A DNA stretch of 64,000 bases from NCBI RefSeq assembly GCF_000374545.1, contig NZ_KB894582.1, positions 124,001-188,000 of the forward strand, in the 5' to 3' direction. Made by a program: the position numbers and the translations under genes. The stretch's first letter is position 1. Each line of letters opens with the position of its first letter. A model generated the notes under the pieces. The model saw nothing but the letters and a program-made list of their open reading frames with translations. It made no database searches and was not told the origin of the DNA. Below are positions 20,199 to 40,869 of this stretch, piece by piece. Origin of the DNA: Anaeromusa acidaminophila DSM 3853. Its GTDB lineage: Bacteria; Bacillota; Negativicutes; Anaeromusales; Anaeromusaceae.

Positions 20199-20490
20199 AA
20201 AAAACCCCTCGTCTATCGTTAAACGATAGGGACGAGGGGTTAACCCGCGGTGCCACCCTAATTGGCTGCAAAGCAGCCCGGCTTGACAAGGTACGGCTAT
20301 GTAAGCGATACCTGCTTTCTGATAACGGCGAAAGATTCCGGCAGCGACTACCCCGCAAGCGGCTCGGGCTGCATCTTCCAGGTCCATTCCACATCTCGAG
20401 CAGTACCGGACTTCCACCAACGCCGGCTCTCTGAAACCCTCTTGAGCAAGTGTACTCTTCCTGGTCATGGATGATCATAATATGGATTTG
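20199..20490 (-). promoter_or_regulatory. T-box leader, tryptophan type
   Basis: Read on the minus strand, it has the T-box core AGGGTGGCACCGCGGG (20259-20244) and a terminator AACCCCTCGTC...GACGAGGGGTT plus a T run (about 20240-20199). In stem I, GTGGAATGGACCTGGAAG aligns with GATGAAATACACCCAGGAG of the tyrS T-box, placing TGG (20386-20384) as specifier codon. It controls the ECF operon below it. Confidence 0.87.
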
Positions 20491-21810: not shown

Positions 21811-24108
21811 ATGTTCAAGAAGGCGGTGACATCCAGTTTGGTGGTGCTGGCCATGCTGCCTGTCATGGCTACTGGCGAAGCGGCGACGCCAGGTTCGGCC
21901 ACTGATGCAGCTTCAGCGAAAACTATGGTGCAGCATCAAGCCATCCAAGAAGGAGTAGAGGAAACCCATCAACGAGCGATTGAACTCTCACGAGCTGGGA
22001 AAATGAATGAGGCGTTGGTGTTATTGCAGGAGCTTAGTCAGCGCCAAGGAGTGGGCGATGCTGTTTGGTATGATTATCTGACGGTGCTGCAGTGGTCGGG
22101 AAACAACAAAGCAACCATTGATATCTTTCAGCAGCGGTATAGCGGCAAAGAAGATTCGGTTCCAGGTTTTGTCCTGCGGTCTGTGGGCGGCGCATACTAC
22201 CAACTGGAAGACTTTGAAAAATCCCAGCGTTACTATACCTTGGCGGTGGCTAAAGGCGAGCTGCCTTCGCGGCTGCAGTTGGCGGAAGCCGCTATGCGCG
22301 CAGGAGATACGGCTACAGGACAGGCTATGTATGGAACGCTATTAAAAGAGTCGCCTGATAATGGTGCGCTGTACTTAAGTCGCTCTAACATGGCCTTATA
22401 TCGCAAGGATTTTTTGCAATCGCAGGCGGATTATCGCAAAGCGTTGGAGCTTTTAGCAGGAGAAGGGAATTTTGAAAAGAAGCGAGACTTTGATTCCGAA
22501 CGGGCGGCTATTTTAATACGGACTGATGAATTGCAGCAAGCTATTTTGCTCTTGCAGCCGTATATGAGCGGGGCAAAAAGCAATAAGCGGATGGAATGTG
22601 ATTACATTCTAGCGTTGCGCCTAAAAGGAGACTATAAACAGGCCATTAGTGAAGGAACGCGGCTGTGGCCGGACTTGGGGGATGTTCCTACGTATGGACT
22701 GCAGGCATTGGGGGATGCCTACCTTCGTTTGGGACAGTTCGAAAAAGCGGATGCGGTATATGCCACGCTATTGAAAAGGGAACCCACGAGGGTTGCGGCG
22801 TATTTAGGCCGGGCTTACGGAATGACTGCTAGGGGGCGTGTCAGCGACGGAGCGGCGTTGTATCGGCAGACCTATGCGCTAGATGCGGCTGCGTCGTCGA
22901 GGATCATCGCTGCGGATGCCAACAGCTTCTTTACGGAAGGTCGCTATGCGGCAGGCAAAGCTTTGTATGAGCTGCTTTTGGAGTTGGAACCGGATAAGGC
23001 CAGCCATTATCGCGAGTATGGCAATAATTTAGCGAGGACGGAGATGCCTCGCGAAGCGTACGGCGTTTTTCGGCGCTTAGCGTCTTTGCCGGAAGGCGAA
23101 CTGTACGGCTTGTCTGGAGAAGTAAAGGCGGCCGTGGCTGCCGGTGACTATCAGTCTGCGCAAAAAGCGTTGATGCAGTTGCAGGAACGGTATGCGCGTC
23201 ATTCTTTGACAGCGGAGGCGATAAACGTATATGAGACCCGGAAAATTGGCGAAGCTACTACCGGATTTACCGCTTTTTCGGATTACAAGGGGAATGACAG
23301 GCGGATCTGGGACCATTCGGGTTCTCATGCATTAGGGGGGAGCAATTGGGATGTTCTTTGGGCTGCCGGCTTTGAACGTGTTGCCGACGATGTTGATGTC
23401 AGCCGGATTAACACACAGAGCGTTGGCTTAGGATATCGCGATCGTTGGTGGTCTACTCGCTTATGGGGTTCCAGCTTTACTGGCGAGGGCAATAGCATGA
23501 ACGGGTTGCGCTGGGAGAGTACGCTTTATTTTCGGGATTATACCTACATGACTTTTGCGGTAGGAAGGCGACCCTTGATGGATGCGCAAGCATGGCGTAA
23601 CGGAGCGATGGGCGACTCTTTCCGTTCGGTTTCGTTTACCCATCGCGTAGGCGCTAGGGATACTTATACCGCAGGCTATGAATGGAGTAATTATACGGAT
23701 AGTAACCGTTACAGCGCTCTTACTCTAGACTTTACACATAATGTATATGCTACAGACAAGAAGACGCTCAGCTGGTTTTTATTCTTCAATCGTTCCCGCT
23801 ACAACTTTGAATCGGATTTGTACGAATCGCCAGCAGCTCGCGTAGGTTATGGCGGCGGCGTCTTCCAACGGTGGGAAATTCCCAAGGGATATTGGGCGCT
23901 GACGTCAGCACTGGGATGGGGCTATGATAAGCCGGATCCGATCGATTTTGCACCCTATTTTCGCTTGGAATACGGTCATGATTTTTCTGCTCAACATTCT
24001 TTGGTTATTGGTTTTGAGTATGGCTTCCGTTCCAACCGAGCTCGTAATGTTCGGGACTCTATTTTCAGCTATCGGCAGTTTGATATTCGTTACAATGTGC
24101 TGTGGTGA
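21811..24108 (+). CDS. pgaA: PgaA-like outer-membrane exporter of poly-N-acetylglucosamine
   Basis: This 765-residue protein has a signal peptide (about 1-25, ending GEAA), a TPR-rich region (about 50-470; repeats include ALVLLQELSQRQG and LYLSRSNMALYRKDFLQSQ), then about 260 residues rich in alternating aromatic and polar positions that end RYNVLW. That end, with a terminal aromatic residue, is typical of outer-membrane barrels. The layout and length match PgaA (about 800 residues), which binds deacetylated PNAG in the periplasm and exports it. It is first in pgaABCD, 12 nt before pgaB. Its presence implies an outer membrane. Confidence 0.88.
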   Translation: MFKKAVTSSLVVLAMLPVMATGEAATPGSATDAASAKTMVQHQAIQEGVEETHQRAIELSRAGKMNEALVLLQELSQRQGVGDAVWYDYLTVLQWSGNNKATIDIFQQRYSGKEDSVPGFVLRSVGGAYYQLEDFEKSQRYYTLAVAKGELPSRLQLAEAAMRAGDTATGQAMYGTLLKESPDNGALYLSRSNMALYRKDFLQSQADYRKALELLAGEGNFEKKRDFDSERAAILIRTDELQQAILLLQPYMSGAKSNKRMECDYILALRLKGDYKQAISEGTRLWPDLGDVPTYGLQALGDAYLRLGQFEKADAVYATLLKREPTRVAAYLGRAYGMTARGRVSDGAALYRQTYALDAAASSRIIAADANSFFTEGRYAAGKALYELLLELEPDKASHYREYGNNLARTEMPREAYGVFRRLASLPEGELYGLSGEVKAAVAAGDYQSAQKALMQLQERYARHSLTAEAINVYETRKIGEATTGFTAFSDYKGNDRRIWDHSGSHALGGSNWDVLWAAGFERVADDVDVSRINTQSVGLGYRDRWWSTRLWGSSFTGEGNSMNGLRWESTLYFRDYTYMTFAVGRRPLMDAQAWRNGAMGDSFRSVSFTHRVGARDTYTAGYEWSNYTDSNRYSALTLDFTHNVYATDKKTLSWFLFFNRSRYNFESDLYESPAARVGYGGGVFQRWEIPKGYWALTSALGWGYDKPDPIDFAPYFRLEYGHDFSAQHSLVIGFEYGFRSNRARNVRDSIFSYRQFDIRYNVLW

Positions 24109-24120
24109 GGAGGGTTTGGC

Positions 24121-26049
24121 ATGAGGTGCAAGGAACATAGCTTGATTTGGTTGTGCTCGTTGCTGTTGACAGCAGTTCTATGGGGCGGTTGGCTTCCGGA
24201 ATGTGCGGCGGCCGAAGGGACTGTATCGATCCTTTGTTACCACGATGTGGGAAATCCTAATCAGCCTGGAGTGGGTGCGAACCCATGGACGGTGACTGAG
24301 AATACGCTGGAAAGTCATTTTAAATATCTAAAAGACAACGGATACACAGTGATCAAAGCGGAAGACTATATTGCCTTTGCCAAGGGGGAGCGGCCGGTCC
24401 CGCCCAAAGCAGTATTGTTGACTTTTGATGACGGATATAGCTCTTTTTACGAAAAAGTCTATCCACTGTTGAAACGCTATAACTATTCTGCAGTGCTTTC
24501 CGTGGTGATAAGCTGGCTCGACGCTAAAGCGCCAGATGAAGTAGGTAAGCTGGTTTCCTGGCAGCAGCTTAAGGAGATGCAGGACAGCGGCGTTGTGGAA
24601 GTGGCTTCCCATTCCTATGACTTGCATCGCTGGGGCATTGCCAATCCCCAGGGAGACGGAGCGATTGTCGCGGAAAACCGACTTTTTGACGGTAAGAATT
24701 ATGAGAGTGAAGGCGCCTATCGGAGTCGTCTTCAGTATGATTTTGATCAAGCGCAGAAGGTGCTGACTCGTGAGTTGGGGCATCCGGCTCGGATCATGGT
24801 CTGGCCATATGGCGGTTATAGTGCGCAGGCGTTAGAGGTTGCCAAGGACGCAGGCTTCACGGTGACCTTGGGACTGGGCGGAGGAAAGAATCAGATGGGG
24901 GAAAATGCTTTGTTTCAAGGGAAGAGAGGCATTATCTATGGAAACCCCTCTGTATCGGAGTTCGCAAAATTTTTACAGAACAGCCTTCTGGATTGGCGGC
25001 AACGTCCTTTGCGTATGGCGCAGGTAGATCTCGACCAGATTTATGACAAAGATGTTCGGCAGATGGAAGAGAATCTGCGGCAGCTAATCGAACGGCTGAC
25101 CGCATCGGATGCCAATTGCGTAGCGCTTCAGGCTTTTGCCGATCCTAAGGGAGATGGCGTTTTAGAGAAGGTGTACTTTGCCACCAAGCATGCTCCGGTA
25201 GAAGCGGATGTGTTTAATCATGTGGCAGGACGTCTTTCGGGGGCTGGTTTTCGCGTTTTCGCCTGGTTTCCGACTTTGGGCGGTCAATGGCTTTTGACAG
25301 GACATTCGGAAGAGGCAGTGAAGGCTAGCGAGGCGGAAAAAGCTGGCTGGTATCAGCGAGCTACCCCCTTTAGCTCTCGCGTGCGCGAGCATATCCGGGC
25401 GTTAGCGAATGATCTTGCGGCGCAGAATCGAATTGACGGCATTTTGTTGCAAGATGATCTGTATTTAAATGATTTTGAGGACTTTTCGCCAGCGGCGCAG
25501 GCTGCCTATCAACGTGAATTCGGTCGGGCGCTGACGCCGGATGTGCGCAAGGATGCAGCGCGTATGGCGGAATGGAGTTCTTGGAAGACACGGGAGCTGG
25601 AGGCGGTGGCGCACGAAGTTATTGCCGAAGTACGTAAGCATCGTCCAGAAGCTTTGTCGCTGCGCAATATTTATGCAGAGCCCGTGCTGAATCCCGCATC
25701 GGAAGAATGGTTCGGCCAAAATTATGCGCACTATTTGCAGCAGTATGACGTTACGGTGCTTATGGCCTATCCGTTTATGGAAAAACAGGGCAAGGATCCG
25801 GAAGGTTGGCTGCGTAAACTGACTGCAGCAGCCTTGCAGCAACCAAAGAGCGAGAGTAAAGTTCTCTTCAAATTGCAAACGTATGATTGGGCTGGTAAAC
25901 GTTGGTTGAGTCGCCAAGAACAGCTGAAACAAGTAGCGGCGCTGCGCGCGGGCGGAGCGCGGCATATGGGGTATTACCCGGAAGGAGTATTTGATTCTCG
26001 GGCTACGCTCTTTAAAGGTGAAGGACGGGAGGTGTATGATCAGCCATGA
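24121..26049 (+). CDS. pgaB: PgaB-like poly-GlcNAc deacetylase/glycoside hydrolase
   Basis: This 642-residue exported protein has a signal peptide (about 1-30). The N-terminal NodB-type deacetylase (about 35-290) has SILCYHDVG, LLTFDDGYSSFY and the metal site SHSYDLH. The C-terminal glycosidase-like domain (about 300-642) has DGILLQDDLYLNDFEDFS, matching PgaB's second domain. In PNAG systems this protein partly deacetylates the polymer in the periplasm, which export requires, and cleaves it. Its length fits E. coli PgaB (about 670). It overlaps pgaC by 4 nt. Confidence 0.9.
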   Translation: MRCKEHSLIWLCSLLLTAVLWGGWLPECAAAEGTVSILCYHDVGNPNQPGVGANPWTVTENTLESHFKYLKDNGYTVIKAEDYIAFAKGERPVPPKAVLLTFDDGYSSFYEKVYPLLKRYNYSAVLSVVISWLDAKAPDEVGKLVSWQQLKEMQDSGVVEVASHSYDLHRWGIANPQGDGAIVAENRLFDGKNYESEGAYRSRLQYDFDQAQKVLTRELGHPARIMVWPYGGYSAQALEVAKDAGFTVTLGLGGGKNQMGENALFQGKRGIIYGNPSVSEFAKFLQNSLLDWRQRPLRMAQVDLDQIYDKDVRQMEENLRQLIERLTASDANCVALQAFADPKGDGVLEKVYFATKHAPVEADVFNHVAGRLSGAGFRVFAWFPTLGGQWLLTGHSEEAVKASEAEKAGWYQRATPFSSRVREHIRALANDLAAQNRIDGILLQDDLYLNDFEDFSPAAQAAYQREFGRALTPDVRKDAARMAEWSSWKTRELEAVAHEVIAEVRKHRPEALSLRNIYAEPVLNPASEEWFGQNYAHYLQQYDVTVLMAYPFMEKQGKDPEGWLRKLTAAALQQPKSESKVLFKLQTYDWAGKRWLSRQEQLKQVAALRAGGARHMGYYPEGVFDSRATLFKGEGREVYDQP

Positions 26050-27311
26050 CTTTATTAGAAATGTTTGGCGCATATATCTTCTATTACCCGATTATTATGA
26101 GTCTCATCTGGATGATCGGGGGCATTTACTATCATTTTCGCTATGAACGCAACCAATCGGACTATCCGGCGCTGACTGCGCACCCGTTAATGTCTGTGCT
26201 GATTCCAGCGAGGAATGAGGCAGGGAATATCCGGGAAACGGTGGAGGCGGTTCTAAATAGCGCATACCCGAACTATGAAGTGATTGTCATTAATGATGCC
26301 AGCACGGATGAGACAGAAGCGATCGTACGGCAGTTGGTAGCGGAACACCAACAGGTACGGATGCTTAATCTGACTGTCAATCAGGGGAAAGCGACAGCTC
26401 TCAATTATGGTTTTTTGATGAGCAAAGGCGAGATTATTGTGACCGTAGACGCTGATTGCATGTTGGATACGCGGGCGCTTCACTGGATGGCCTGGCATTT
26501 TATCAACTTTCCCCGCGTTGGCGCTCTTACCGGCAATCCAAGGGTGCGCAACCGCACGACGCTGTTGGCGCAGATTCAGACGGCGGAATACGCCAGCGTA
26601 ATCGGTCTGATCAAACGGACGCAGAGGGTGTTGGGCAAGGTGCTCACCGTGTCCGGAGTTATCGCCGCCTGGCGGCGTCAGGCTCTTTTGGATGTGGGGC
26701 TTTGGAGCAATGATATGATTACCGATGATATTGATATGACCTGGAAAATGGAAAAACGCTTTTGGGATGTGCGCTATGAAACCAAGGCGATTGGCTGGAT
26801 GCTGGTGCCTGAGACCCTGTGGGGTCTTTGGCGGCAGCGCTGCCGCTGGGCCCAGGGAGGCGTAGAAGTTATTCGCCGACATCGCAACGTTTGGAGTGAC
26901 TGGCGGCAGCGGCGTATTTGGCCGCTGTATATTGACTATGTTCTCAGTATTATTTGGGCCCATATTTTCCTGCTTTGTATGATCTTTTGGAGCTATGGGT
27001 GGCTTAGCGGCGATTGGTTTCTCATTGCTCAGCTAGGAAACCCCGTTGCTCTGTGGAATGGTTCGGTGATTGCGTTGGTATGTATGCTGCAATTTGCCGT
27101 GAGCTTGCTGGTGGATAACAAATATGATAAGCATCTTTGGCTTACGTATTTTTGGGTTATTTGGTATCCTGTCATCTATTGGGTTTTCAATGCCATGACG
27201 GTGTTGGTGGCCACGCCTCGGGGTCTCACCAAAAAATTTGGGAAAGCGGCGACCTGGGCTAGTCCGGATCGCGGTCTAAGGGCGGTGACGCATGATGCGC
27301 AGCAAAAATGA
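26046..27311 (+). CDS. pgaC: PgaC-like poly-beta-1,6-GlcNAc synthase (GT2)
   Basis: This 421-residue inner-membrane glycosyltransferase has an N-terminal TM (about 8-28), a GT2 domain with LIPARNEAGN, VDADC (DxD), TDDIDMTW and QRCRW (the QxxRW motif), and C-terminal TM segments (about 300-390). It polymerises UDP-GlcNAc and passes the chain through the membrane together with PgaD. It is coupled to pgaB by an ATGA overlap and overlaps pgaD by 20 nt. Confidence 0.94.
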   Translation: MTLLEMFGAYIFYYPIIMSLIWMIGGIYYHFRYERNQSDYPALTAHPLMSVLIPARNEAGNIRETVEAVLNSAYPNYEVIVINDASTDETEAIVRQLVAEHQQVRMLNLTVNQGKATALNYGFLMSKGEIIVTVDADCMLDTRALHWMAWHFINFPRVGALTGNPRVRNRTTLLAQIQTAEYASVIGLIKRTQRVLGKVLTVSGVIAAWRRQALLDVGLWSNDMITDDIDMTWKMEKRFWDVRYETKAIGWMLVPETLWGLWRQRCRWAQGGVEVIRRHRNVWSDWRQRRIWPLYIDYVLSIIWAHIFLLCMIFWSYGWLSGDWFLIAQLGNPVALWNGSVIALVCMLQFAVSLLVDNKYDKHLWLTYFWVIWYPVIYWVFNAMTVLVATPRGLTKKFGKAATWASPDRGLRAVTHDAQQK

Positions 27312-27801
27312 GCTTCCCATCATCTTTGTGCCTCAATTGGAACCGAAGGGGCAGCGGACGCTAGAAGGAATGCTGAAATTTATCCTGACCGTTATTTTCA
27401 TCTTGATTTTAGCGGTTCTTACGCTTGCGCTGTGGATTGCTTCCGGATTTCATGTGCAGGAGCAGGTTTTGGCGGACGCCTATATCAAGAGGTCCTGGGG
27501 GATGTTGTTTACAGTGGGGTGGGTTGCCTTAGCGGCGTTTCTGATTATGCTGGTTTGGCAGCAATACAATCTGCGTGTTTTTGGCAAACGAACGAGGCGG
27601 CAGTTTCCACCGCCTGTAGGTCCTGCGGAAGTGGCAAGGATGCTGCAAATTTCGGAGGAAACCGTGATTCATGCGCAAGAGCTGCGTATTGGAGTGTTTC
27701 ATGTAGAAGACGGCAAGCGAATATTGTGCGATGATGAATTTGTGTGCACGTCCTTAGAGAGTGTGACTACTATGGAAGAACCGAAAAAAAGCGGCGAATA
27801 G
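27292..27801 (+). CDS. pgaD: PgaD-like PNAG synthase accessory protein
   Basis: This 169-residue protein has two TM helices (about 30-52 and 68-90), then QQYNLRVFGKRTRRQ and a cytoplasmic region with EVARMLQISEETVIHAQELR. This matches the layout of PgaD, the partner that stabilises and regulates PgaC, in some species through shared c-di-GMP binding. It closes the pga operon; its stop codon lies within the terminator hairpin. Confidence 0.82.
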   Translation: MMRSKNELPIIFVPQLEPKGQRTLEGMLKFILTVIFILILAVLTLALWIASGFHVQEQVLADAYIKRSWGMLFTVGWVALAAFLIMLVWQQYNLRVFGKRTRRQFPPPVGPAEVARMLQISEETVIHAQELRIGVFHVEDGKRILCDDEFVCTSLESVTTMEEPKKSGE

Positions 27802-27812
27802 CCGCTTTTTTT
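27784..27812 (+). terminator. pga operon terminator overlapping the pgaD stop
   Basis: Stem AAAAAAAGCGGC / GCCGCTTTTTTT with loop GAATA that contains the TAG stop of pgaD, so terminator and coding end are fused. Confidence 0.85.
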
Positions 27813-27963
27813 ATTTCTCCTAAAAGTAGTAAGATGAATTATTCTATTGATGAAAATGATAAAATAATGGTGTAAAAAACATAAAAGCGTAACAATGAAG
27901 CGTTGGTCCTGGGACTTAAAGCTTAAAAAAGCGTGTAAAATAATGGATTTGTTTGGCGCTATT

Positions 27964-27972
27964 TGGTATAAT
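27964..27972 (+). promoter_or_regulatory. extended -10 promoter for the pel-like operon
   Basis: TGGTATAAT is an extended -10 (TGnTATAAT). The -35 at 17-bp spacing (TGGATT) is weak, as is usual for this promoter class. It lies about 100 nt upstream of the first pel gene. The rest of 27813-28069 holds only the leader hairpin. Confidence 0.5.
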
Positions 27973-27991
27973 CGGTCTTGTCGTTGTGCCG

Positions 27992-28033
27992 TGTCCGCTG
28001 GATGTAGATTTACGTTAGGGACATTTTTTTTTT
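27992..28033 (+). promoter_or_regulatory. terminator-like hairpin in the pel leader
   Basis: TGTCC (27992-27996) pairs with GGACA (28019-28023), with further pairs inside, and is followed by ten Ts (28024-28033). It lies between the promoter and the first start codon, so it could attenuate the operon. I see no known riboswitch fold before it, and no c-di-GMP aptamer motif. Confidence 0.45.
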
Positions 28034-28069
28034 GCTGAAATGGTGCTTGTAACGAGAGGATGGGATCGT

Positions 28070-29056
28070 TTGAAGAAAAAGACAGGATTGGCGTTATGCT
28101 TGGCAATGATTTTTTTGTTAAGTTTTGCGACGTATGGAGAAGTGAAAGATCACTCACAGAGTTTGTCGCCTCGGCAGGAAATGATTAAGCTTGTTCAGGA
28201 ACTGCGGCAGTATGCGCGGGCGCAGAAAAGCGATTTTGTGTGTATTGGCAATAATGGCTTAGAATTGATGATGGAAAAGGACGAATTGGTTTCTGAAAAT
28301 GAGCTTTCGGGCATGCTGGCAGGTTTTGACGGTATGTTGCTGGAGTCCTTTTTTTATGGTTCGGATATGGAAAGCAACAAGAGAACGCCGCTGGAGCATC
28401 GTATGTACTTGATGGATGCGCTTAAACGTTTCCAAGGAGCGGGCAAGCCGGTTTTCAACATTGAATATGCGAATGACCCTGAGATTATGGGAAGCGCTTA
28501 TCGCCAAAGTCAGCGTGCCGGGCTGATTCCTCTTGCTGCGGATCGGAGAGAATTGAACAATATTCCTCAATATCCCGCTACCGTTTGGGAAGAAAACGCA
28601 TCGCCGATTACCAAGCTGGGGGAGGCGCGCAATTTCCTGGCATTATTTAATCCAGATCGATTTGAAACAAAAGAAGAATATTTACAGGCTTTAGAACGTT
28701 CGCGCTATGATGTATTGATTATAGATGCTGAATATCAGGGGGAATGGCTGGAGCCGGCAGATGTAGCCCGCCTTCAGCGCAAGCCAAACGGCGTTAGACG
28801 CTTAGTGCTTTCCTATTTTAGTATCGGAGAAGCGGAATCATACCGTGCCTATTGGAAGGAAGAATGGAATAAAAAGCCGCCAGCTTGGATTGTGGAGCTT
28901 AACCAAGATTGGGAGCACAATTATCGTGTAAAGTACTGGGCTCCAGAATGGAAGCAGATTTTATACGGAAGTCCGTCAGCGCAGTTGGATCGTATTTTGC
29001 AGGCAGGCTTTGACGGCGTCTTTTTGGATGTAGTAGATGTATATCAATATTTGTAA
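28070..29056 (+). CDS. exported TM1410/GH114-type glycosidase of the pel-like operon
   Basis: This 328-residue protein has an N-terminal signal peptide. The start is TTG at 28070, 8 nt after GAGAGGA. It resembles the TM1410/endo-polygalactosaminidase-like TIM barrels: FVCIGNNGLELM, FDGMLLESFFYG, DVLIIDAEYQGEWLEP, RRLVLSYFSIGEAESYR and the end GFDGVFLDVVDVY. In P. aeruginosa PelA a glycosidase domain of this kind is fused to the deacetylase; here it is a separate first gene, and the deacetylase lies at 32026. It probably trims Pel-like polymer outside the cytoplasm (inference). Confidence 0.8.
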   Translation: MKKKTGLALCLAMIFLLSFATYGEVKDHSQSLSPRQEMIKLVQELRQYARAQKSDFVCIGNNGLELMMEKDELVSENELSGMLAGFDGMLLESFFYGSDMESNKRTPLEHRMYLMDALKRFQGAGKPVFNIEYANDPEIMGSAYRQSQRAGLIPLAADRRELNNIPQYPATVWEENASPITKLGEARNFLALFNPDRFETKEEYLQALERSRYDVLIIDAEYQGEWLEPADVARLQRKPNGVRRLVLSYFSIGEAESYRAYWKEEWNKKPPAWIVELNQDWEHNYRVKYWAPEWKQILYGSPSAQLDRILQAGFDGVFLDVVDVYQYL

Positions 29057-29080
29057 TAGAAAACACGAGGAGGTGAGCAT

Positions 29081-31147
29081 GTGAAGGTTTTAGTAGTAGG
29101 GAAGCAAGACGTAGTAATTGATTCGTTACTGGTTCGCTTGCGAAAAGAAGGCAACGAGGTATCTTGGAGTCCATTAGAAAGCAACCTAAGCTACGGGGGG
29201 GCTTGCAACCTGGAAGCGCTGCTGGCGCTGCATAAGCCGGAGTGTTTAATATATCGGCCCTTTGGGGACGGGAATTTACAGGGGCTGGAGGGGGAAAATG
29301 CGGTAAGTTTGCTGGGGCAATTGCTTTTGTACGCTGAGAGACAAGGCGTATCGCGTTTTTTCTTGCTTTCTTCTTCACGGATCTTTGGGGTTGCAGGAAA
29401 ACGTCTTTGGGAGTCATCGCAAGTCGTATGCCCCGAAGGAGACCAAGCGGCTGTTCTTTCAGCGATGGAGCGCTTGCTTCTATGTTGGCCAAAGGAAAAA
29501 GGGCTAAACACCTGCGTTGTTAGAATCCCGCTGGTATATGGAGAGGCGCAGAGTATAGAGGAGAAAGCATTATTCTTGCGGCGGCTTCAAGCGGCAAGAA
29601 AGACAACGACTGTAGTGGGCGGCGATTATTTGCACGCAGGCGACGCGGCAGACGGGATAGAACGTCTTTTGCGAAGCGCCCAAGATCTGCATATTGTACA
29701 TTTGGCTGCAGTAGAGCCTGTGTCGATAGAGCTGGTGATGAAATGTCTTAATGCAACCCCGTGGCCGGAAATAGAGAAGGAAGAGATAGTAGGCTGGCCT
29801 TCTTTGGCAGTGTCGGAAGAGGTCGAAGCATTGCAAACGTGGCGACCGCGTTATTCCCTGAAAAGTGATTTAAGCGAGTGGAGCATACCAGGAGCCGAGG
29901 CGTCGCGCAATAGGGGCGCGGGATCTTGGCGGAGCTGGCTGGCACAAAAAAAGCCGTACTTAGAAAACGCTACTTTGTTCGCTTTGCTGGCGGCATTCAG
30001 CTTTGCTAATTCGTTTGGCGGTTTGATTGATTTGCGCTTGGGTGTAGATTATAACTTTCTTTATATTGCCCTTATGGGGCTTTTGTACGGGAAAAAGCAA
30101 GCTTTGCCGGCGGGAGCCTTGGCTGCGGCCTTATTCATATTTCATTTGCAGTTGCGCGGGATGGACGTATTAACGGGTTTATACCAAATGGAGTATTTAG
30201 TGCATCTGACATTGTATTTGCTGGTAGCGATTGTGACAGGTTATGTTACTGATAACGCCAAGCGTCTTACGGAAGACCAAACTTTGACGATGCAAAATCT
30301 GCAACATCGCTATGAAGATTTACGCAATCTTTATGGAGAAAGCCTGCGCCTTAAGGATAGTTTAGCAGCGCGTATCGTTAATGCCAATGACAGCCTAAAT
30401 CAGATTTATGACGTGGTTCGCAGTTTGGACAGTGTACGTCATGAAGAAGTGTACACAGAAGCAGTAGAGGTAGTGGGACGTATTTTACAGATACCGGCTG
30501 TTGCTCTATATACAGTAAATGCCGAAAGCACCTATTTGCGGTTGCGTGTGAGAAGCCATGCTTGCGCGCAGTCTATAAAAAACTCTCTTCGTATTACGGA
30601 CATGCCTCATTGCAAGACCTTAATGGAGGAACGGCAAGTTTGCGTTAACCGGCAGCCTGCTGAAGGGGAACCGGTTTTTGCGGCGCCTATTTCGTACCAT
30701 GGACGCGTGGTGGCGGTATTGCATTTATACGGGGCGACGTTTGAAAAAATGTCATATTATCATGCGGATTTACTGCGTGTAGTGGCGTTGATGGTTTCGG
30801 ATGTTCTTGGACGCGCCTATGAATATGACCAACTGCAGCAAGATCAGCGCTATATTGAGGGAACCAGCATGCTTCAAGCGGAAGAGTTTGAAAAGGTGAA
30901 AGAGGAAATGCAGAATCGCCAGGAACGGTTTCTGCAGGACTATGCGCTGTTGGTGTTGTCTGGGGAGACGGAGCTGGAAAAACTTTGTAAGAAAGTATCG
31001 GCGTTGATACGTGCAGAGGACTATCTAGGGGTTGGACGAGACGGATCGGTGCAGTTGCTGCTGCCCAATACCTCCGCGGGCATGGCGGCGCAAGTTATGG
31101 ACAGACTTCGAGATGCGGGCTTTGTGGTTGAAGAAAGGGTGGCGTAA
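29081..31147 (+). CDS. pelD: PelD-like c-di-GMP receptor with extra degenerate SDR domain
   Basis: This 688-residue protein starts at GTG after AGGAGGTG. The N-terminal part (about 1-270) looks like an NAD-dependent epimerase/SDR fold (FFLLSSSRIFG, VVRIPLVYGE, YLHAGDAADGI), but the glycine-rich loop is altered and the YxxxK site is missing. About four TM helices (about 290-395), a GAF domain (about 430-570) and a degenerate GGDEF domain follow. In the last, RAEDYLGVGRDGSVQLLLP has RDGSV in place of GGDEF and RAED exactly five residues before it, the position of an RxxD I-site. PelD binds c-di-GMP and activates Pel synthesis in the inner membrane. The SDR extension is not part of standard PelD as I know it. 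Confidence 0.85.
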   Translation: MKVLVVGKQDVVIDSLLVRLRKEGNEVSWSPLESNLSYGGACNLEALLALHKPECLIYRPFGDGNLQGLEGENAVSLLGQLLLYAERQGVSRFFLLSSSRIFGVAGKRLWESSQVVCPEGDQAAVLSAMERLLLCWPKEKGLNTCVVRIPLVYGEAQSIEEKALFLRRLQAARKTTTVVGGDYLHAGDAADGIERLLRSAQDLHIVHLAAVEPVSIELVMKCLNATPWPEIEKEEIVGWPSLAVSEEVEALQTWRPRYSLKSDLSEWSIPGAEASRNRGAGSWRSWLAQKKPYLENATLFALLAAFSFANSFGGLIDLRLGVDYNFLYIALMGLLYGKKQALPAGALAAALFIFHLQLRGMDVLTGLYQMEYLVHLTLYLLVAIVTGYVTDNAKRLTEDQTLTMQNLQHRYEDLRNLYGESLRLKDSLAARIVNANDSLNQIYDVVRSLDSVRHEEVYTEAVEVVGRILQIPAVALYTVNAESTYLRLRVRSHACAQSIKNSLRITDMPHCKTLMEERQVCVNRQPAEGEPVFAAPISYHGRVVAVLHLYGATFEKMSYYHADLLRVVALMVSDVLGRAYEYDQLQQDQRYIEGTSMLQAEEFEKVKEEMQNRQERFLQDYALLVLSGETELEKLCKKVSALIRAEDYLGVGRDGSVQLLLPNTSAGMAAQVMDRLRDAGFVVEERVA

Positions 31148-31148
31148 T

Positions 31149-32036
31149 ATGACACTGGCAGCATGGTTGAGCGGACAAGCCTTATTGGCAGGAGGGTATT
31201 CGGTAGGAGCTAAGCTCATGCGCGGGGAACGAAGAGCTTGGGTACAGGGCTTGCTGATTTTGCTCTTGCCGGTATGGGGCTTGGTTTTAGTGGCGCTTTT
31301 GCATGGAAAAAAAAGCGGTAGCGACGAGCTGCCTGATTTATATGCAGGCTTTCGGAAACAGGTGCGCACTTTGCGGCGGCCAAGTCAAGAAGAATATCAG
31401 TTAATGCCTGTGGTCGATGTGCTGAAAGTGCAAAATTCCCGTGCGAAGCGGGGGTTAGTGGGGCATGCGGTACAAAAAGGATTGCTGCATAGCGCGCCGG
31501 TCTTGTCGGCGGCTGTTCGCGACTCCGATCAGGAGGTGGCCCATTACGCAGTGTCGGTATTGACTCATCGGCAAGCTCAAGTGGAACGCCAGCTTCGGCG
31601 AGCTAAAGACGGCATGAATATTGATGCGGATGCAGGTGCGGAGTGGGCGTTGCGGTATGTTGACTTAGCGGCTGAATACCGTCGAATTGCAGTGCTGGAT
31701 GAAAATGCGCAACATATTTTCTTTCGCGAGTACCTGGGTGTGTTGGAACAGGTGTTGGCTCAAAAGAAAGAAGTTTGGTATTTCGAAGAAGCAATGGATG
31801 TTTTGGAAGCGATGGGAGATGTGCCAGGGGCCTTGGCAATAGGGACAGAGTTTCAAGAAACCTTTCCTAGCCGCGAAGAGCCGTATTTTCGTCTGTTGTC
31901 CTTGCAGCATCAACAAGGACGGTACCAGGAGTTGCAAGAGACTCTAGAACGGATGAAAAAGCAGATTCCGCTCTTTTCGAAAGAAGCAGTTCGAGTGATC
32001 CGGTTTTGGCAGGGAGATGCTTCCTATGCATCATAA
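31149..32036 (+). CDS. pelE: PelE-like membrane/TPR protein
   Basis: This 295-residue protein begins with two hydrophobic segments (about 5-20 and 30-50). A long helical soluble part follows, with TPR-like pairs such as YFEEAMDVLEAMGDVPGALA and FRLLSLQHQQGRYQELQETL. PelE has this layout and forms the inner-membrane synthase complex with PelD, PelF and PelG. The ATG at 31149 begins one base after the pelD stop. It overlaps the next gene by 11 nt. Confidence 0.8.
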   Translation: MTLAAWLSGQALLAGGYSVGAKLMRGERRAWVQGLLILLLPVWGLVLVALLHGKKSGSDELPDLYAGFRKQVRTLRRPSQEEYQLMPVVDVLKVQNSRAKRGLVGHAVQKGLLHSAPVLSAAVRDSDQEVAHYAVSVLTHRQAQVERQLRRAKDGMNIDADAGAEWALRYVDLAAEYRRIAVLDENAQHIFFREYLGVLEQVLAQKKEVWYFEEAMDVLEAMGDVPGALAIGTEFQETFPSREEPYFRLLSLQHQQGRYQELQETLERMKKQIPLFSKEAVRVIRFWQGDASYAS

Positions 32037-33858
32037 GAGTATTTATTTTGTATTAGGATTAGTGTTGTTTTTAGGATTGCTTTTTCAATATAATCGGCAA
32101 GATGGTTTTTTGCACTTGTTGAAAAATACTAACGATCTAGTTTTAAGGCCGGTGCAGGATGCCCCGGCAGATGTTAAAAATCTGGCGGAAGAAACCTTGC
32201 TGCTTGTGTACGACCCGTTGGATGGCGATAGCTTGCGTATTCGGGCGAACGTGGAACGGACACTTCGTTACATGCATAAAGCCGTACGGCCGGTGTCGGT
32301 GCAGGGAGCAAGTTCTTTCGAAGGCTATAGCGGTGTAATTGTAACGGCTTCACGGTTAGATCGGATTGTCGGCAGCGCTGCTTTGCGGCAATATGTACAG
32401 CAAGGAGGCTCGTTATACGTCCTTGCAAGTCCGGCGCTGGAAGCGGTTTCGCCGGAATGGGCTGAACTGCTTGGTTGGCAGAGTGTTGATGAACAAGAAT
32501 CTTCTTATGGTCTGAAGATGGAAAGCGATCTGCTTTTGGGAGCGAAGGGGTTGGAGCTGTCGGAGGATGATATGGTCAACTCCTCGCTGCACGGTGAACT
32601 TCGCTCTGGAGTCAAAGTTCACGCCAAGTCCCAAGATGAAGTACCGCTATTATGGGAACATCCTTACGGGCAGGGACGCGTAGCGGTATGTAACGGCAAT
32701 CTTTTAAGCAGCAAGGAAAATCGCGGCGTTATTGCCGGCCTTCTCTCACTGGGCAAGGAGCCTTTCTTGTATCCAGTGGCGGGAATTCGTATGGTACATA
32801 TTGATGATTTTCCTGCGCCAGTACCGAATGAAAAGCATGAAAAAATTTATCAGGAATACCGCTTGGAAATGCCTGACTTTTATCGTCAAATTTGGTGGCC
32901 GGATATGCTAAAAGCGGCAGAACGCTATGATATCAAATATACTGGACTAATTATCGAATCCTATAATAAGCAAATCTCTGGGCCATTTTCGCCGGAAAAA
33001 GGCGATGGGGCTACGCGGAATAACCTGGTTATCTACGGGCGCGAATTGTTGCGTCATGGCGGTGAATTGGGGATTCATGGCTACAACCACCAGCCGCTGG
33101 TGTTAAGCCACCAGCAAAAACATATGCGCGGTTTTTATGAGACCTGGCCTGGGCAAGAGCCTATGGCTGAAAGCCTGCGCGAGTTGAAACGCTATGTGGC
33201 GGAAGCGTATCCAGATTATCAGTTGCGCGTCTATGTGCCGCCGTCCAATATTTTGGGGCCTGAAGGAAGAGCGGCGGTGAAAGAAGTCTTTCCTGATTTG
33301 CATATTGTTGCAGCTATTTTTTCAGCCTCGGATGACCCTGAGGCTGCGGATAGCTATTTGCAAGAATTTGAACGAGGACCGGACGGTATTTTGAACATGC
33401 CTCGCATCAGTGCGGATTATGTAGTTCCGGATTATAACCGCTGGAGTCTCATTAACGCCATCAATTATTTGGGGATTTTTTCGCACTTTATTCATCCAGA
33501 CAATATTTATTATGAAGAAAACGGCCAAAGAAGCTGGCGGGAGATGTATGAGGGCCTGGACGGCTTGTTGCGCATGGTGCATGATCAATATGGCTGGTTG
33601 CGCAGTTGTACGATGTCCCAGGGGGGAGAGCTGGTCGATGATTACCTGAATCTCAACTATCGCGTACAGCGCGAACCGGAGAGAATTCGACTGCATGCCT
33701 GGGGCTTTCGTCAAGATGCATTCTTTGTGCTGCGCAGTCGGCAAAACGTGAAATACGCAGAGGGAGCCCAGGTGCAAAAAATCGGTGACCAAGCATATCT
33801 GGTTAAGCTGCAGCGTCCTGAAGCGCTTATTTATCTTGCGGCGGAGGCAACACAATGA
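32026..33858 (+). CDS. pelA: PelA-like polysaccharide deacetylase (DUF2194 type)
   Basis: This 610-residue protein has an N-terminal signal anchor (about 4-22). It has a flavodoxin-like region (about 45-240, GGSLYVLASPALEAV) and a deacetylase domain (about 250-540) with VHIDDFPAPVP, ELGIHGYNH and HFIHPDN supplying the Asp-His-His metal site, then a beta-rich end. In Pel systems the deacetylase part of PelA partly deacetylates the GalNAc-rich polymer. Here the glycosidase part is a separate gene (28070). The ATG at 32026 is preferred over 32017, as GGGAG lies at the right distance. It overlaps pelF by 4 nt. Confidence 0.85.
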   Translation: MHHKSIYFVLGLVLFLGLLFQYNRQDGFLHLLKNTNDLVLRPVQDAPADVKNLAEETLLLVYDPLDGDSLRIRANVERTLRYMHKAVRPVSVQGASSFEGYSGVIVTASRLDRIVGSAALRQYVQQGGSLYVLASPALEAVSPEWAELLGWQSVDEQESSYGLKMESDLLLGAKGLELSEDDMVNSSLHGELRSGVKVHAKSQDEVPLLWEHPYGQGRVAVCNGNLLSSKENRGVIAGLLSLGKEPFLYPVAGIRMVHIDDFPAPVPNEKHEKIYQEYRLEMPDFYRQIWWPDMLKAAERYDIKYTGLIIESYNKQISGPFSPEKGDGATRNNLVIYGRELLRHGGELGIHGYNHQPLVLSHQQKHMRGFYETWPGQEPMAESLRELKRYVAEAYPDYQLRVYVPPSNILGPEGRAAVKEVFPDLHIVAAIFSASDDPEAADSYLQEFERGPDGILNMPRISADYVVPDYNRWSLINAINYLGIFSHFIHPDNIYYEENGQRSWREMYEGLDGLLRMVHDQYGWLRSCTMSQGGELVDDYLNLNYRVQREPERIRLHAWGFRQDAFFVLRSRQNVKYAEGAQVQKIGDQAYLVKLQRPEALIYLAAEATQ

Positions 33859-35291: not shown

Positions 35292-38200
35292 GCTGAAAAA
35301 GCTGTTTAAAGACAAGAGCGCCTTCGGGTATGCGAAAGCCTATGCATATACGGCGGTAGTGACGGTAGGTCCGTTTTTGCTGGCTGTGCTGCTGCTGTTG
35401 GTGTTGCAGCTGCTGCTGAAGGAAGGCGAAGTTCCCTACGCGTTTCGCATGGTATACCAGTGCTCTATTGTGTATGCGTTGGTTTTTTCACAAATTCTTT
35501 CCAGTGGCTTTTCTATGATAATTACCCGTTTTGTAGCGGATCAGCTGTATGCGGGACAGGAGGAATATATTCTGCCCTCCCTGCACTGTATGGTGGTAGT
35601 GGCATTGGCTTGCGGAGCGCCAGTGGCTATTTTGTTCCTATGGTCGTCGCCGCTGGATTTTCTTTTGAAAGCGTTGACTTATGTGCTGTATTTGACAATG
35701 ATCGTGATTTGGATTCAAGCGGTGTATTTATCAGCGCTCAAGGATTATCGCAAGATTCTGCTGGCCTACGCCATAGGAGTAGGAATAGCAATTTTGGCGG
35801 GAGTAGTTGTTGTTTGGCAGGGAGCATATTTAGTGGAAGGGATGCTAGGGGCCGCTTGTATGGGGGTTGGTGTCATCGCTATGATCCTGCAATGGCAGCT
35901 ACAACGCTTTTTCCCTTGGCGGGCCCAGCAAGTCAGTTATCGTCAAATTATGGCGGCTTGGCTCGATTATAAGGAATTGTTTGGTGTGAACTTTTTTTAT
36001 ACACTAGGATTATTTTTGCCTAATTTCTTGTTTTGGTTTGGCCGGGATTCCCAACTGATTGCCTGGACGTATCGCGTGGCGCCGGAATACGATATGGCGA
36101 CCTTTTTTGCTTTGCTGACAGTGCTGCCGGCAATGATTATGTTTGTAGTTGCTACAGAACTTTCTTTTTATGATAAATATATTGTGTATTTTCAACGTAT
36201 CGTGGGCAAAGGCAATTTTCAGGAGATTAGTGAAGCCCGCAAAGACATGTTACAGGTTCTTTGGTCGGAATTGCGTCACCTGATGGAATTTCAACTTTGC
36301 TTTTCGCTCTTATTTTTAGCGTTGGGAAGTTATTGGCTTCCCAAGGTGGGCGGAAGCTATCGTGTGATTGAAATTTACACGATTTTAGTATTGGCGGCGT
36401 ATTGCATTTCCATGATGCAAAGCGTTTTGATTTTACTTTTGTATTTTGAAGACCGCCGCGGCGCCCTATTGGTGACTTCGCTGTTTGCGGCAGGGTCCTT
36501 TATTTTCAATCTTTTATCGGTACTGGGTGACGCCAGCGGCAATACGGATGGCTTTGGCGTATTTGCCGCAGCATTTGCAGCTCTTGTATATGCTTTGCGG
36601 CGATTGCGTTACTATACAGACCGTATTGATTATTTTGTGTTTTGCACGCAACCGGTTTTACAAGGGCATGAACGAGGAGGCTGGCTTCGAAATTGGCTTT
36701 TGCGGCGCAGCGTAGCGGCGGCCCTTGCGGTTTTTGTCGCAGGTTACGCGTCTCCTCTTTGGGCGGGGGCGGCGCAGATCGAAGAAGAAAGTCAGCAACA
36801 GCATCAGACCTTAAAAAATGACGCCTTGCGCTTGGCGGAGATAAAACAGCTTCGTAAAGAGCTTGTGGAAGTGAAAGAAGAACTGAAAAGCGCCGAAGCA
36901 ATGATGCGTGAAGCGCAGGACCAAATTGCGCAGGCGGAAAAACAAAAAGGCGATGTGTTGCAGCGGCAGGAAGCGCTGCGTCTACAAATGAAGGAAGCTG
37001 AACGGCAGTGGCCGGAGCTTAAAGAGCAGCTGAAACATGCTCAAGAACGTTTGCATCAACTGCGTCAGGAAGAAGCGGCCCTTCAAGAACAGGCTGAGAA
37101 TGCAAGGCAGCGAGGCGAGCAAGCGCAAGCTTCCGTGGAAGCCATAGAGGCGCGGGCGCTTCAACAAGGAAGCCTTGATCAGTTAAAAGAAGAGGAGTTG
37201 GAACGGCTGGCGGCGGCAGCGGATGCTTTGAATGAACGGTTGGAAGGCGCTTATGCAGCGGCGGAGACATTACAGGCGGAAGCGGATGCCTTGGATCAGT
37301 CGTTAGAAGCCTTCCAGGCTCGAATCGAGGCGGCGGAGGCCAGAGAAAATCATTGGCAAGAACAAGTTCAGAAGATGCAGGATCATTGGCAAGAGGCGCG
37401 CGATGGTTTGCAAGATGCTCTAAAGGAAGAGCAAGAAACCAAAAACGATCTCGCAGAGGCGCACTCTTTCTTGAAAGAAGCGACAACTTCTAAAACAGAG
37501 CTTCAACAATATGAAAAAGAAGTTGTCAAGCAGCTGCAAGGACCTCCGCCGGTTCGGGAAGGTTCTTTGGAGCAGCGGTATTATAGCTGGTCTGGTAACG
37601 GGAGTAGCGGCTATCAATGGTTGAAGAGCGGTACGGTAGCGTACAACGATAAAGAGGTAGAAGCCAGCTTGCGCCTGCAGCATGTGAATGCACAAGCTAC
37701 GGTTAACGGCGCTAAGGGCTATTTGGCCGGCTGGATGGATACGCAGTTGGCGGTGACGCGGACAAAAGAGGATAAGACGCATATATGGCGCTATGGGGTG
37801 GACGTGAATTTGCCTACTGGCATGACGCGGCTTTCCTCTGCCGCAAGGCAGGCTCAAGTAGACGATGACTTAGTGGAAACCGATGTGTTTGGCGAAGGCT
37901 GGAATTGGACGCCAAGAGTGGAATGGAGTTATAAAAAAGGAGAGCAGGATCTCTGGACTCTGGGGACAAGTTACGGCTTCCGAGGCAGTTATGTCCGGTA
38001 TAGCTCTGGGACGGCAGACGATATGGCTAGCTATTCTCCGGGCAATGAATGGAGCCGCTATCTTCGGTGGAGACACCTGGGAGAAAAACATCGCATTGAA
38101 TGGGAAGCGTCGAACTCGGTTTATAGTGATGCAACGTTAAATGGAGCAGCATGGTATCGTTCGGGAAATGCTTGGGACGTACGAGGTTCCTATGCGAAAA

Positions 38201-38577
38201 CATTGACGCCAGACTCTGAATTACAGGTATATATACGTCAGCATTGGGATGCGGCGGAGCGTTCCTACCAGGGAGAAGACCTTGGGGGCGGGCAAAAGCG
38301 TCGTTATGCAGGGGTTGCCTTGGAAAGAGAAATTAAGCCAGGGCGTTTATTGCGTTTTTCGTTAGATGGCATGTGGGCAGATGGAAACTTGTTGGATCCA
38401 AAGACTGATTTGCTTAAAAGCAAGCGTCAGCGCTATTCGGTAGGCATCGGCTACGAGATTACGCTGGCGAAAGAGAGACGGCTCTATTGGGATCTACGCT
38501 GGTTCCGGTTGCATCAAGATGAGGCGGCAAGTTATCATGGCTATCAGCTTTCGTGCGGCTTTTTCCAATCTATGTAG
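35272..38577 (+). CDS. pelG: PelG fused to a coiled coil and predicted outer-membrane beta-barrel
   Basis: The ATG at 35272 starts AGIGFELKKLFKDKSAFGYA, the PelG hallmark, inside the end of pelF. Residues 1-462 form a polytopic membrane protein of normal PelG length (MOP/flippase-like, the Pel synthase membrane subunit). The frame continues without a stop. Residues about 477-500 are RRSVAAALAVFVAGYASPLWAGA in character: two Arg, a hydrophobic core, then an AxA-like cleavage site, so a signal peptide or extra TM. About 501-762 is a long Glu/Gln/Ala-rich coiled coil. About 764-1101 has alternating aromatic/polar strands (YGVDVNLPTGM, WTLGTSYGFRGSYVRY, WDLRWFRLH) and ends GYQLSCGFFQSM, like an outer-membrane barrel. 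GAGGAGG (36674-36680) with TTG 19 nt later hints at possible internal initiation. The barrel may replace PelB/PelC. The fusion itself is seen directly; its role is inferred. Confidence 0.88.
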   Translation: MAGIGFELKKLFKDKSAFGYAKAYAYTAVVTVGPFLLAVLLLLVLQLLLKEGEVPYAFRMVYQCSIVYALVFSQILSSGFSMIITRFVADQLYAGQEEYILPSLHCMVVVALACGAPVAILFLWSSPLDFLLKALTYVLYLTMIVIWIQAVYLSALKDYRKILLAYAIGVGIAILAGVVVVWQGAYLVEGMLGAACMGVGVIAMILQWQLQRFFPWRAQQVSYRQIMAAWLDYKELFGVNFFYTLGLFLPNFLFWFGRDSQLIAWTYRVAPEYDMATFFALLTVLPAMIMFVVATELSFYDKYIVYFQRIVGKGNFQEISEARKDMLQVLWSELRHLMEFQLCFSLLFLALGSYWLPKVGGSYRVIEIYTILVLAAYCISMMQSVLILLLYFEDRRGALLVTSLFAAGSFIFNLLSVLGDASGNTDGFGVFAAAFAALVYALRRLRYYTDRIDYFVFCTQPVLQGHERGGWLRNWLLRRSVAAALAVFVAGYASPLWAGAAQIEEESQQQHQTLKNDALRLAEIKQLRKELVEVKEELKSAEAMMREAQDQIAQAEKQKGDVLQRQEALRLQMKEAERQWPELKEQLKHAQERLHQLRQEEAALQEQAENARQRGEQAQASVEAIEARALQQGSLDQLKEEELERLAAAADALNERLEGAYAAAETLQAEADALDQSLEAFQARIEAAEARENHWQEQVQKMQDHWQEARDGLQDALKEEQETKNDLAEAHSFLKEATTSKTELQQYEKEVVKQLQGPPPVREGSLEQRYYSWSGNGSSGYQWLKSGTVAYNDKEVEASLRLQHVNAQATVNGAKGYLAGWMDTQLAVTRTKEDKTHIWRYGVDVNLPTGMTRLSSAARQAQVDDDLVETDVFGEGWNWTPRVEWSYKKGEQDLWTLGTSYGFRGSYVRYSSGTADDMASYSPGNEWSRYLRWRHLGEKHRIEWEASNSVYSDATLNGAAWYRSGNAWDVRGSYAKTLTPDSELQVYIRQHWDAAERSYQGEDLGGGQKRRYAGVALEREIKPGRLLRFSLDGMWADGNLLDPKTDLLKSKRQRYSVGIGYEITLAKERRLYWDLRWFRLHQDEAASYHGYQLSCGFFQSM

Positions 38578-38682: not shown

Positions 38683-38925
38683 ATGGAAGAGAAAAAAGGC
38701 GCTCGGAAAGTGTTCTTGCAAATCTTTATGGCGTTAGGGAGCCCGTTGTTCTTACTGGCCATTGTAGCATTGTTCTTTTTTGCTTTCGGCGCGGGGTACT
38801 TGGTGTCCTGGATTTTGAGACCCTTGGGTTTTTGGCCCTTTGCAGGGTATCTCGATTTTTTAGTCAAAGAAGTGGTGGGTTGTTTTGTTCTCAGCTTTTT
38901 GGCGATTGCCCTGGCTAAACGTTAA
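38683..38925 (+). CDS. small inner-membrane protein, unknown
   Basis: This 80-residue protein has two hydrophobic helices (about 14-42 and 60-77) and a charged N-terminus. The ATG follows GAGGAGGCAGAC. It lies about 100 nt after pelG on the same strand, before a terminator, so it could be the last cistron of the pel transcript or an independent gene. No family is recognised. Confidence 0.65.
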   Translation: MEEKKGARKVFLQIFMALGSPLFLLAIVALFFFAFGAGYLVSWILRPLGFWPFAGYLDFLVKEVVGCFVLSFLAIALAKR

Positions 38926-40778: not shown

Positions 40779-40869
40779 TGGCGGAGTGGGTGGGATTTGA
40801 ACCCACGCACGGGTTACCCCGTCTAACGATTTAGCAAACCGTCCTCTTCAGCCACTTGAGTACCACTCC
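40779..40869 (-). tRNA. tRNA-Ser (GCT)
   Basis: A class II tRNA with a long variable arm. Acceptor GGAGTGG pairs with CCACTCC, the anticodon loop is TTGCTAA within ACGGT/ATCGT, and CCA is encoded. Confidence 0.95.

What the first reader, a model, noticed from the sequence alone, without database searches (positions are those of the whole stretch)
21811..38577. Complete pga and pel-type exopolysaccharide operons back to back
pgaABCD is followed after a terminator and about 260 nt by a glycosidase-pelD-pelE-deacetylase-pelF-pelG operon, all on one strand. Each system is usually found alone. Together they form a 17-kb biofilm island with separate promoters and probable c-di-GMP input at PelD and possibly PgaC/PgaD. 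Both have outer-membrane components, which fits a diderm Firmicute.
Basis: partly seen in the sequence, partly recalled or inferred. Interest (0 to 1): 0.75.

Follow-up and report, generated by a model that had tools for sequence, protein, structure and literature searches.

The report
Pel operon with fused outer-membrane exporter
Beside an ordinary PNAG operon lies a Pel-type biofilm-sugar operon whose inner-membrane transporter is fused, through a built-in signal peptide, to an outer-membrane barrel of a little-described family that looks like the sugar-export pore of two-membraned Firmicutes.

Summary
A complete pgaABCD operon (21811-27801) is followed, after a terminator-like hairpin and 238 nt, by a pel operon (28040-38577). 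A sister species has the same pga and both flanks but no pel: about 180 bp lie where the window has 10.9 kb. pga and pel co-occur in 7 of 250 Negativicutes genomes and lie within about 8 kb in 3. So the pairing is real, uncommon and only modestly informative.

(1) The last ORF is not just pelG. PelG (12 hydrophobic segments) runs in frame into a signal peptide, a coiled coil of about 256 residues and a 16-stranded beta-barrel, 1101 aa in all. In 54 other Negativicutes pel loci none is fused; the barrel is the separate next gene in 48. It is absent from 41 non-Negativicutes pel loci. Other copies of this barrel sit in cellulose-like and other synthase operons. I read it as the Negativicutes exporter that replaces PelB/PelC. 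(2) Paenibacillus independently fuses PelG to a CotH lipoprotein through an internal lipobox. (3) The PelA-type hydrolase is a circular permutant of GH191, with the catalytic pair kept.

Most likely the fusion is a polyprotein cut by signal peptidase. New variant of a known kind.

The parts
21811..24108 (+). pgaA: TPR + barrel export porin for PNAG
   Evidence: TIGR03939 89.7 bits, below its cut-off; TPR families; the only match of this protein in its own genome
24121..26049 (+). pgaB: deacetylase + GHL13 domains
   Evidence: TIGR03938 580 bits, PF14883, PF01522
26046..27311 (+). pgaC: PNAG synthase
   Evidence: TIGR03937 509 bits, cut-off 422
27292..27801 (+). pgaD
   Evidence: PF13994, TIGR03940, both above cut-off
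27784..27812 (+). terminator-like hairpin with T run, overlapping the end of pgaD
   Evidence: 12 pairs; the scan total is not above chance
28040..29056 (+). pelH: secreted PelA-type hydrolase, circular permutant of GH191/GH114-type TIM barrel; catalytic E102 precedes D330 in the chain
   Evidence: (residues 255-337 = TM1410 59-137; 43-167 = TM1410 148-267); catalytic pair mapped
29081..31147 (+). pelD: degenerate SDR - membrane - GAF - degenerate GGDEF; c-di-GMP I-site RAED at 31010-31021
31113..32036 (+). pelE (start codon inferred)
   Evidence: position and homologues in the same place in other pel loci; no family hit
32017..33858 (+). pelDA: DUF2194 deacetylase with N-terminal membrane helix
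   Evidence: PF09960 420 bits
33855..35291 (+). pelF: GT4 polymerase
   Evidence: NF038011 366 bits, PF11997
35272..36696 (+). PelG part of the 1101-aa fusion: 12 hydrophobic segments and a basic tail
   Evidence: PF16933 414.6 bits
36697..36771 (+). internal signal peptide (13th hydrophobic segment; possible cleavage AGA/AQ after residue 500)
36772..37539 (+). coiled-coil stalk, about 256 residues
   Evidence: SMC-type coiled-coil matches 504-755; composition; last 54 residues helical in the model
37540..38577 (+). 16-stranded outer-membrane beta-barrel, end of the fused ORF
38683..38925 (+). small flanking ORF, conserved at the pel-free site of the sister species (right border)
   Evidence: window from 38617 on aligns with G028, 84%

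Best explanation
This is a resident PNAG operon (pgaABCD) next to a Pel-type operon adapted to a two-membrane Firmicute. PelD (switched on by c-di-GMP), PelE, PelF and PelG make the galactosamine polymer and move it across the inner membrane; PelDA deacetylates it; the permuted hydrolase PelH trims it; and a coiled-coil/16-strand barrel protein takes it through the outer membrane in place of PelB/PelC. In this species pelG and the exporter gene have become one ORF. PelG ends in the cytoplasm after 12 segments, its basic tail serves as the n-region of an internal signal peptide, and signal peptidase I most likely cuts after residue 500, releasing a coiled-coil barrel of about 600 residues. Shown: gene content, fused frame, predicted barrel fold, conservation of the barrel next to pelG, absence from non-Negativicutes pel loci, recurrence of the barrel in other polysaccharide-synthase operons, permutation with the catalytic pair retained, and the pel-free site in a sister species. 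Inferred: export function, cleavage, polymer identity and c-di-GMP control.
For: Fused ORF: (no stop in frame; 12 segments, then a 13th at 476-494). It is the only single-ORF match over 1-1101 among 380 class genomes; 0 of 54 other Negativicutes pel loci is fused. Barrel next to pelG: 46 of 54 by script, plus L081 and L082, whose genes are consecutive but overlap more than the script allowed. Barrel in 34 of 80 named pel loci, all with Negativicutes titles; 0 of the 41 non-Negativicutes loci has it. In a phylum sample all 4 genomes with the barrel are of this class. Barrel copies away from pel: of 11, 7 sit with a GT2 synthase (G000:C19 and G152:C14 with BcsA+PilZ, MBOAT, AlgX-like; G048 and G063 with BcsB, GT2, DUF2334, the first also with GGDEF; G052, G152:C12 and G212 with GT2 and, in the first two where it was scanned, a deacetylase). 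Model: pLDDT 89, 16 strands. PelB of PelBC is Foldseek rank 3 and VIA Z 19.3; PgaA and BcsC are among the hits. PelG and barrel distances correlate (49 taxa, r = 0.73, 0 of 999 permutations). Independent parallel: in 6 Paenibacillus loci PelG runs through a lipobox into a CotH lipoprotein; a lipobox is useless unless cut. PelG is described as a 12-helix bundle in B. cereus (passages of PMC13254593).
Against: Ordinary porins, CymA, FhaC and BamA score as well as PelB, so the fold alone does not show export of sugar. A sequence profile of the barrel finds no solved relative. The r of 0.73 may reflect only species descent. 2 barrel copies (L084, L230) are not in polysaccharide operons, one (L229) stands next to a UDP-sugar dehydrogenase at a contig end, and one (G050) was not examined. 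In L068 and L211 the barrel is not next to pelG. The fusion rests on one assembly; a one-base error at the junction is not excluded. The cleavage site was picked by eye and a -3/-1 rule, not by a trained predictor.
Confidence: 0.72

Rival explanations
1. The fusion is a sequencing or assembly error: pelG and the barrel gene are really separate, as in the other Negativicutes.
For: 0 of 54 other loci is fused. An out-of-frame ATG (36668) with a purine-rich stretch before it opens a 15-codon frame at the junction (frame 1). Only one assembly (61 contigs) is held.
Against: The PelG tail aligns with those of G009 and G016 (FCTQPVL...G...R.WL) right up to the signal peptide, and the joined frame gives an n-region, a hydrophobic core and a cleavage site without a gap. 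The opposite event needs one extra base, and PelG would then overrun the barrel start by tens of codons. In-frame PelG fusions to a different exported gene occur in 6 Paenibacillus loci.
Confidence: 0.12
2. The fusion is not cut: one chain runs from the inner-membrane flippase through the periplasm to the outer-membrane pore.
For: The coiled coil (about 256 residues) is long enough to cross a periplasm, and the model shows a helix running straight into the barrel.
Against: The linker keeps an intact signal peptide with AGA/AQ. The Paenibacillus fusions keep a lipobox, which implies cutting. BAM-dependent folding of a tethered barrel would be unusual (established knowledge).
Confidence: 0.13
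3. The barrel is a general porin or envelope tether, like OmpM, that happens to sit in the operon.
For: General porins match the model as well as PelB does; it has a coiled-coil stalk; two copies are orphans.
Against: Present in 66 of 380 genomes, mostly those with pel, and next to pelG in 48 of 54 loci; 7 of 11 other copies are in synthase operons. No SLH or other family hit, unlike OmpM (SLH domain, passages of PMC5491611).
Confidence: 0.15
4. pga and pel were assembled together under selection as a biofilm island.
For: 3 of 7 genomes with both have them within about 8 kb, in different orders (window pga-pel; Selenomonas sp. AE3005 pel-pga with pelH beyond; G009 7.7 kb apart).
Against: 4 of 7 have them on different contigs; co-occurrence is barely above chance (p = 0.059). 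Sister species G028 and G010 keep pga without pel.
Confidence: 0.35

Closest known systems
Gram-positive pelDEADAFG operon of Bacillus cereus ATCC 10987 and relatives (PMC7112168)
   Same: Gene order D-E-DA-F-G; SDR on PelD as in Brevibacillus and clostridia; separate hydrolase; c-di-GMP I-site motif.
   Different: Adds an outer-membrane barrel, fused to PelG here; hydrolase on the same strand and permuted. The held text of that paper has no 'Negativicutes' and no 'fusion'.
Pseudomonas aeruginosa pelABCDEFG with PelBC (PMC12141448)
   Same: Two-membrane Pel machine with a 16-strand exporter.
   Different: No TPR scaffold, no PelC in the locus; coiled coil instead; PelA split in two; no sequence similarity of the barrel to PelB found.
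GH191 / GH166 / GH114 endo-galactosaminidases (PMC12054363)
   Same: Both halves of the TIM barrel and the Asp/Glu pair.
   Different: Order of the halves is swapped; 'permut' does not occur in the held text of that paper.
TPR-barrel exporters PgaA, BcsC, PelB
   Same: 16-strand barrel with a long periplasmic part, encoded beside the synthase.
   Different: Coiled coil rather than TPR; occurs with Pel, BcsA-PilZ and GT2/deacetylase operons alike.

Membership tests
pgaABCD (PNAG) | PgaC synthase, PgaD, two-domain PgaB and PgaA porin in one operon | tested here: met
   PgaA scores below the equivalog cut-off but has TPRs and the right place
pgaABCD (PNAG) | Makes poly-beta-1,6-GlcNAc | not testable with these tools
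   needs chemistry or Dispersin B
pelDEADAFG (Gram-positive Pel) | Core genes D, E, DA, F, G in order | tested here: met
pelDEADAFG (Gram-positive Pel) | PelD c-di-GMP I-site RxxD | tested here: met
   (motif only; binding not tested)
pelABCDEFG (Proteobacterial Pel) | PelB TPR-barrel exporter | tested here: not met
   the locus barrel has no TPR; PgaA is the only PgaA-like match in the genome; PelB itself was not searched for
pelABCDEFG (Proteobacterial Pel) | PelC lipoprotein | tested here: inconclusive
   no gene in the locus fits; no dedicated search was made
GH191 endo-galactosaminidase | Catalytic Asp and Glu of TmGH191 (D156/E225) | tested here: met
   D330/E102, invariant in the 27 rows of A3
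GH191 endo-galactosaminidase | Canonical order of the barrel halves | tested here: not met
GH191 endo-galactosaminidase | Activity on Pel | not testable with these tools
   needs the enzyme
Outer-membrane exopolysaccharide exporter | 16-strand barrel | tested here: met
   (prediction)
Outer-membrane exopolysaccharide exporter | Moves polysaccharide | not testable with these tools
   guilt by association only
OmpM (Negativicutes porin-tether) | SLH domain | tested here: not met
   no Pfam hit in 36700-38574

The most novel reading that the evidence does not exclude
PelG and the outer-membrane exporter stay one polypeptide: a single chain in which an inner-membrane flippase, a coiled-coil stalk across the periplasm and a 16-strand outer-membrane pore form a covalent trans-envelope conduit for a polysaccharide.
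Probability: 0.13. Interest if true: 0.9.

Novelty: new variant of a known kind. Interest (0 to 1): 0.62.

Why it matters
How two-membraned Firmicutes get synthase-made polysaccharides through their outer membrane has no named protein in the papers searched here. A barrel family confined to Negativicutes in this data, found with Pel, cellulose-like and other synthases, is a concrete and easily deleted candidate. The PelG fusions, to a barrel here and to a CotH lipoprotein in Paenibacillus, place the PelG C-terminus in the cytoplasm and predict polyprotein processing by signal peptidase I or II in bacteria. A permuted galactosaminidase with its active site kept is a natural experiment on that fold and a possible anti-biofilm enzyme.

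Tried and rejected
pel as PelABC-type: rejected, no TPR-barrel in the pel part. A mobile element carrying pel: no transposase or integrase among the ORFs between the breakpoints; not looked at further. A riboswitch or other known RNA before pel: Rfam finds only a T-box (20225-20477 -) and two tRNAs in 20000-42000. Sequence relatives of the barrel in the PDB: none (two chance hits at E 0.85 and 1.1). GC of pel (0.488 H-F, 0.459 pelG) is not clearly different from the surroundings (0.466-0.533), so no compositional sign of transfer. Charge of the barrel as a sign of a cationic cargo: mean net charge of the 49 pel barrels is -5.6 but the window's is +1, so it says nothing here. VIA lists do not exclude families that are absent from them. 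Literature: no paper with PelG and CotH fused or with a Negativicutes Pel exporter was found; these searches cover open-licence PubMed Central only. One search looked for a bacterial precedent of a signal-peptidase-cut membrane polyprotein (fbcH of Bradyrhizobium); it found no text on it, so that precedent is recalled, not read.
Full report
What is there. The window is G000:C1:124001-188000 of a 3.48-Mb genome. pgaA-D (21811-27801) is complete by family searches. After a hairpin at 27784-27812 and 238 nt come pelH, pelD, pelE, pelDA, pelF and a last ORF ending at 38577. Its start at 35272 overlaps pelF; the protein is 1101 aa.

Why here. In the same-genus genome G028 the block ecfT-cbiO-cbiO-ecfS-thioesterase-orf-pgaABCD and the genes DASS-corA-deacetylase are all in the same order without pel. 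The window matches it up to 27758 (82%) and again from 38617 (84%); about 180 bp there correspond to about 10.86 kb here. G010 also has pga and the upstream block but not pel or the same downstream genes; G038 has no PgaB above cut-off. So pel was gained beside a resident pga, or lost from sisters. Of 250 class genomes 36 have a PelG match (my count of the rows that cover PelG), 26 PgaB above cut-off and 7 both (G000, G009, G011, G061, G088, G116, G205); p = 0.059. In G061 (the same contig as the named locus L145, Selenomonas sp. AE3005) the order is pel, then pgaABCD, then pelH on the other strand; in G009 pga lies 7.7 kb before pelH. The other four have them on different contigs.

The fused exporter. 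PelG matches PF16933 over residues 1-457. A hydropathy script gives 12 segments and a 13th at 476-494, read as a signal peptide: RNWLLRR-SVAAALAVFVAGYASPLWAGA/AQ. Residues 501-756 are rich in A, E, Q and L with one proline and match SMC-type coiled coils. AlphaFold2 on residues 702-1101 with 26 relatives gives pLDDT 89, a helix and 16 strands. Foldseek puts PelB of PelBC third (E 1.1e-9), and BcsC and PgaA within the first 21; VIA gives PelB Z 19.3, rmsd 4.8, 279 aligned, level with CdiB, BamA and CymA. PelB has 16 strands and resembles BcsC and PgaA (passages of PMC12141448).

Comparative evidence. I fetched 54 Negativicutes pel loci besides the window (L050-L083, L207-L226). A single script scored them: 0 fused; barrel directly after pelG in 46, plus L081 and L082 whose overlap exceeded the script's limit. 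The six left are L061 (same locus, further on), L068 and L211 (not beside pelG), and L210, L215 and L216 (contig ends). Not fetched: four genomes with fragmentary PelG (G343, G373, G375 and G226's second piece). Among 80 named pel loci, 34 have the barrel, all with Negativicutes titles; of the 46 without, 5 are Negativicutes and 41 are not, three of these ending within 900 nt of pelG. The named and unnamed sets share genomes and must not be added. G016 and G108 have pelG and the barrel in one frame split by one stop codon, the step before a fusion. The barrel profile hits 66 of 380 class genomes and, in a phylum sample of 299, 4 genomes, all of this class. Eleven copies are away from pel (my reading of the rows): seven with GT2 synthases, one next to a UDP-sugar dehydrogenase at a contig end (G208), two orphans (G001, G378), one not examined (G050). 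The window's own genome carries one beside a BcsA-PilZ synthase, MBOAT, AlgX-like and GH5 genes.

A second, independent fusion. In 6 of 12 Paenibacillus loci PelG continues through a basic stretch and a lipobox (LTGC, LSGC, LSAC, LGAC, LGAC, TTAC) into about 540 more residues. CotH kinase was confirmed by Pfam in the two tails scanned (L168, L197) and in the separate next gene of L139, L155 and L165. Some of these have an internal Met that could start translation. The 2020 paper lists CotH as a separate accessory gene (passages).

The hydrolase. phmmer aligns residues 255-337 to TM1410 59-137 and 43-167 to 148-267: the halves are swapped. In the Negativicutes loci 43 hydrolases are permuted, none canonical, 1 is cut by the edge; over all loci 64 permuted, 4 canonical, 3 one-half, with duplicates. 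Clostridium bornimense (L185) also has the permuted form. TmGH191 D156/E225 (section 3.4 of PMC12054363) map to D330/E102, invariant in 27 rows. The model (pLDDT 92) matches GH191 structures over only about 126-147 columns at 1.6-2.2 A (Env-GH191 144 columns at 3.2 A), as expected when one half can be followed at a time.

PelD. RAED at 644-647; the site is present in all 33 relatives printed, one of which the regular expression missed. The N-terminal SDR lacks the usual glycine motif by eye; PMC7112168 says the same of clostridial PelDs (section read).

Supporting phenotype. In Selenomonas, strains with PelF and PelG homologues form biofilms and a species without them does not (passages of PMC13339959); this is a correlation between two species.

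Verdict. The pairing is real. The fused, TPR-free exporter and the permuted hydrolase are the parts worth following. Mechanism beyond sequence and predicted fold is inference.

Noticed in passing
L168, L178, L181, L192, L193, L197 (pelG ORFs): Paenibacillus PelG fused in frame to a CotH-type lipoprotein through an internal lipobox.
   Followed up: partly
L087:8830-10722 (-), own genome C19: Second copy of the coiled-coil barrel beside a BcsA-PilZ synthase with MBOAT, AlgX-like and GH5 genes: a third exopolysaccharide system, perhaps acetylated cellulose.
   Followed up: partly
L067:1076-4675 (-) (same contig as named L183, Selenomonas ruminantium ATCC 12561): Barrel ORF of 1200 aa whose profile match is split at 199/200 by about 1.3 kb: a large in-frame loop insertion. 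G363 (929 aa) looks alike.
   Followed up: no
L061, L066 (named L136, L146) and L162: Tandem duplication of the pelDA deacetylase.
   Followed up: no
L055, L078 (named L123, L199): pelDA split into two frames, possibly a pseudogene or an assembly error.
   Followed up: no
window 20225-20477 (-): T-box leader ahead of an ECF transporter block.
   Followed up: no
window 40782-40986 (-): Two tRNA genes after the DASS transporter.
   Followed up: no
L084:7331-9295 and L230:11067-13394: Coiled-coil barrel genes with no polysaccharide genes nearby.
   Followed up: no
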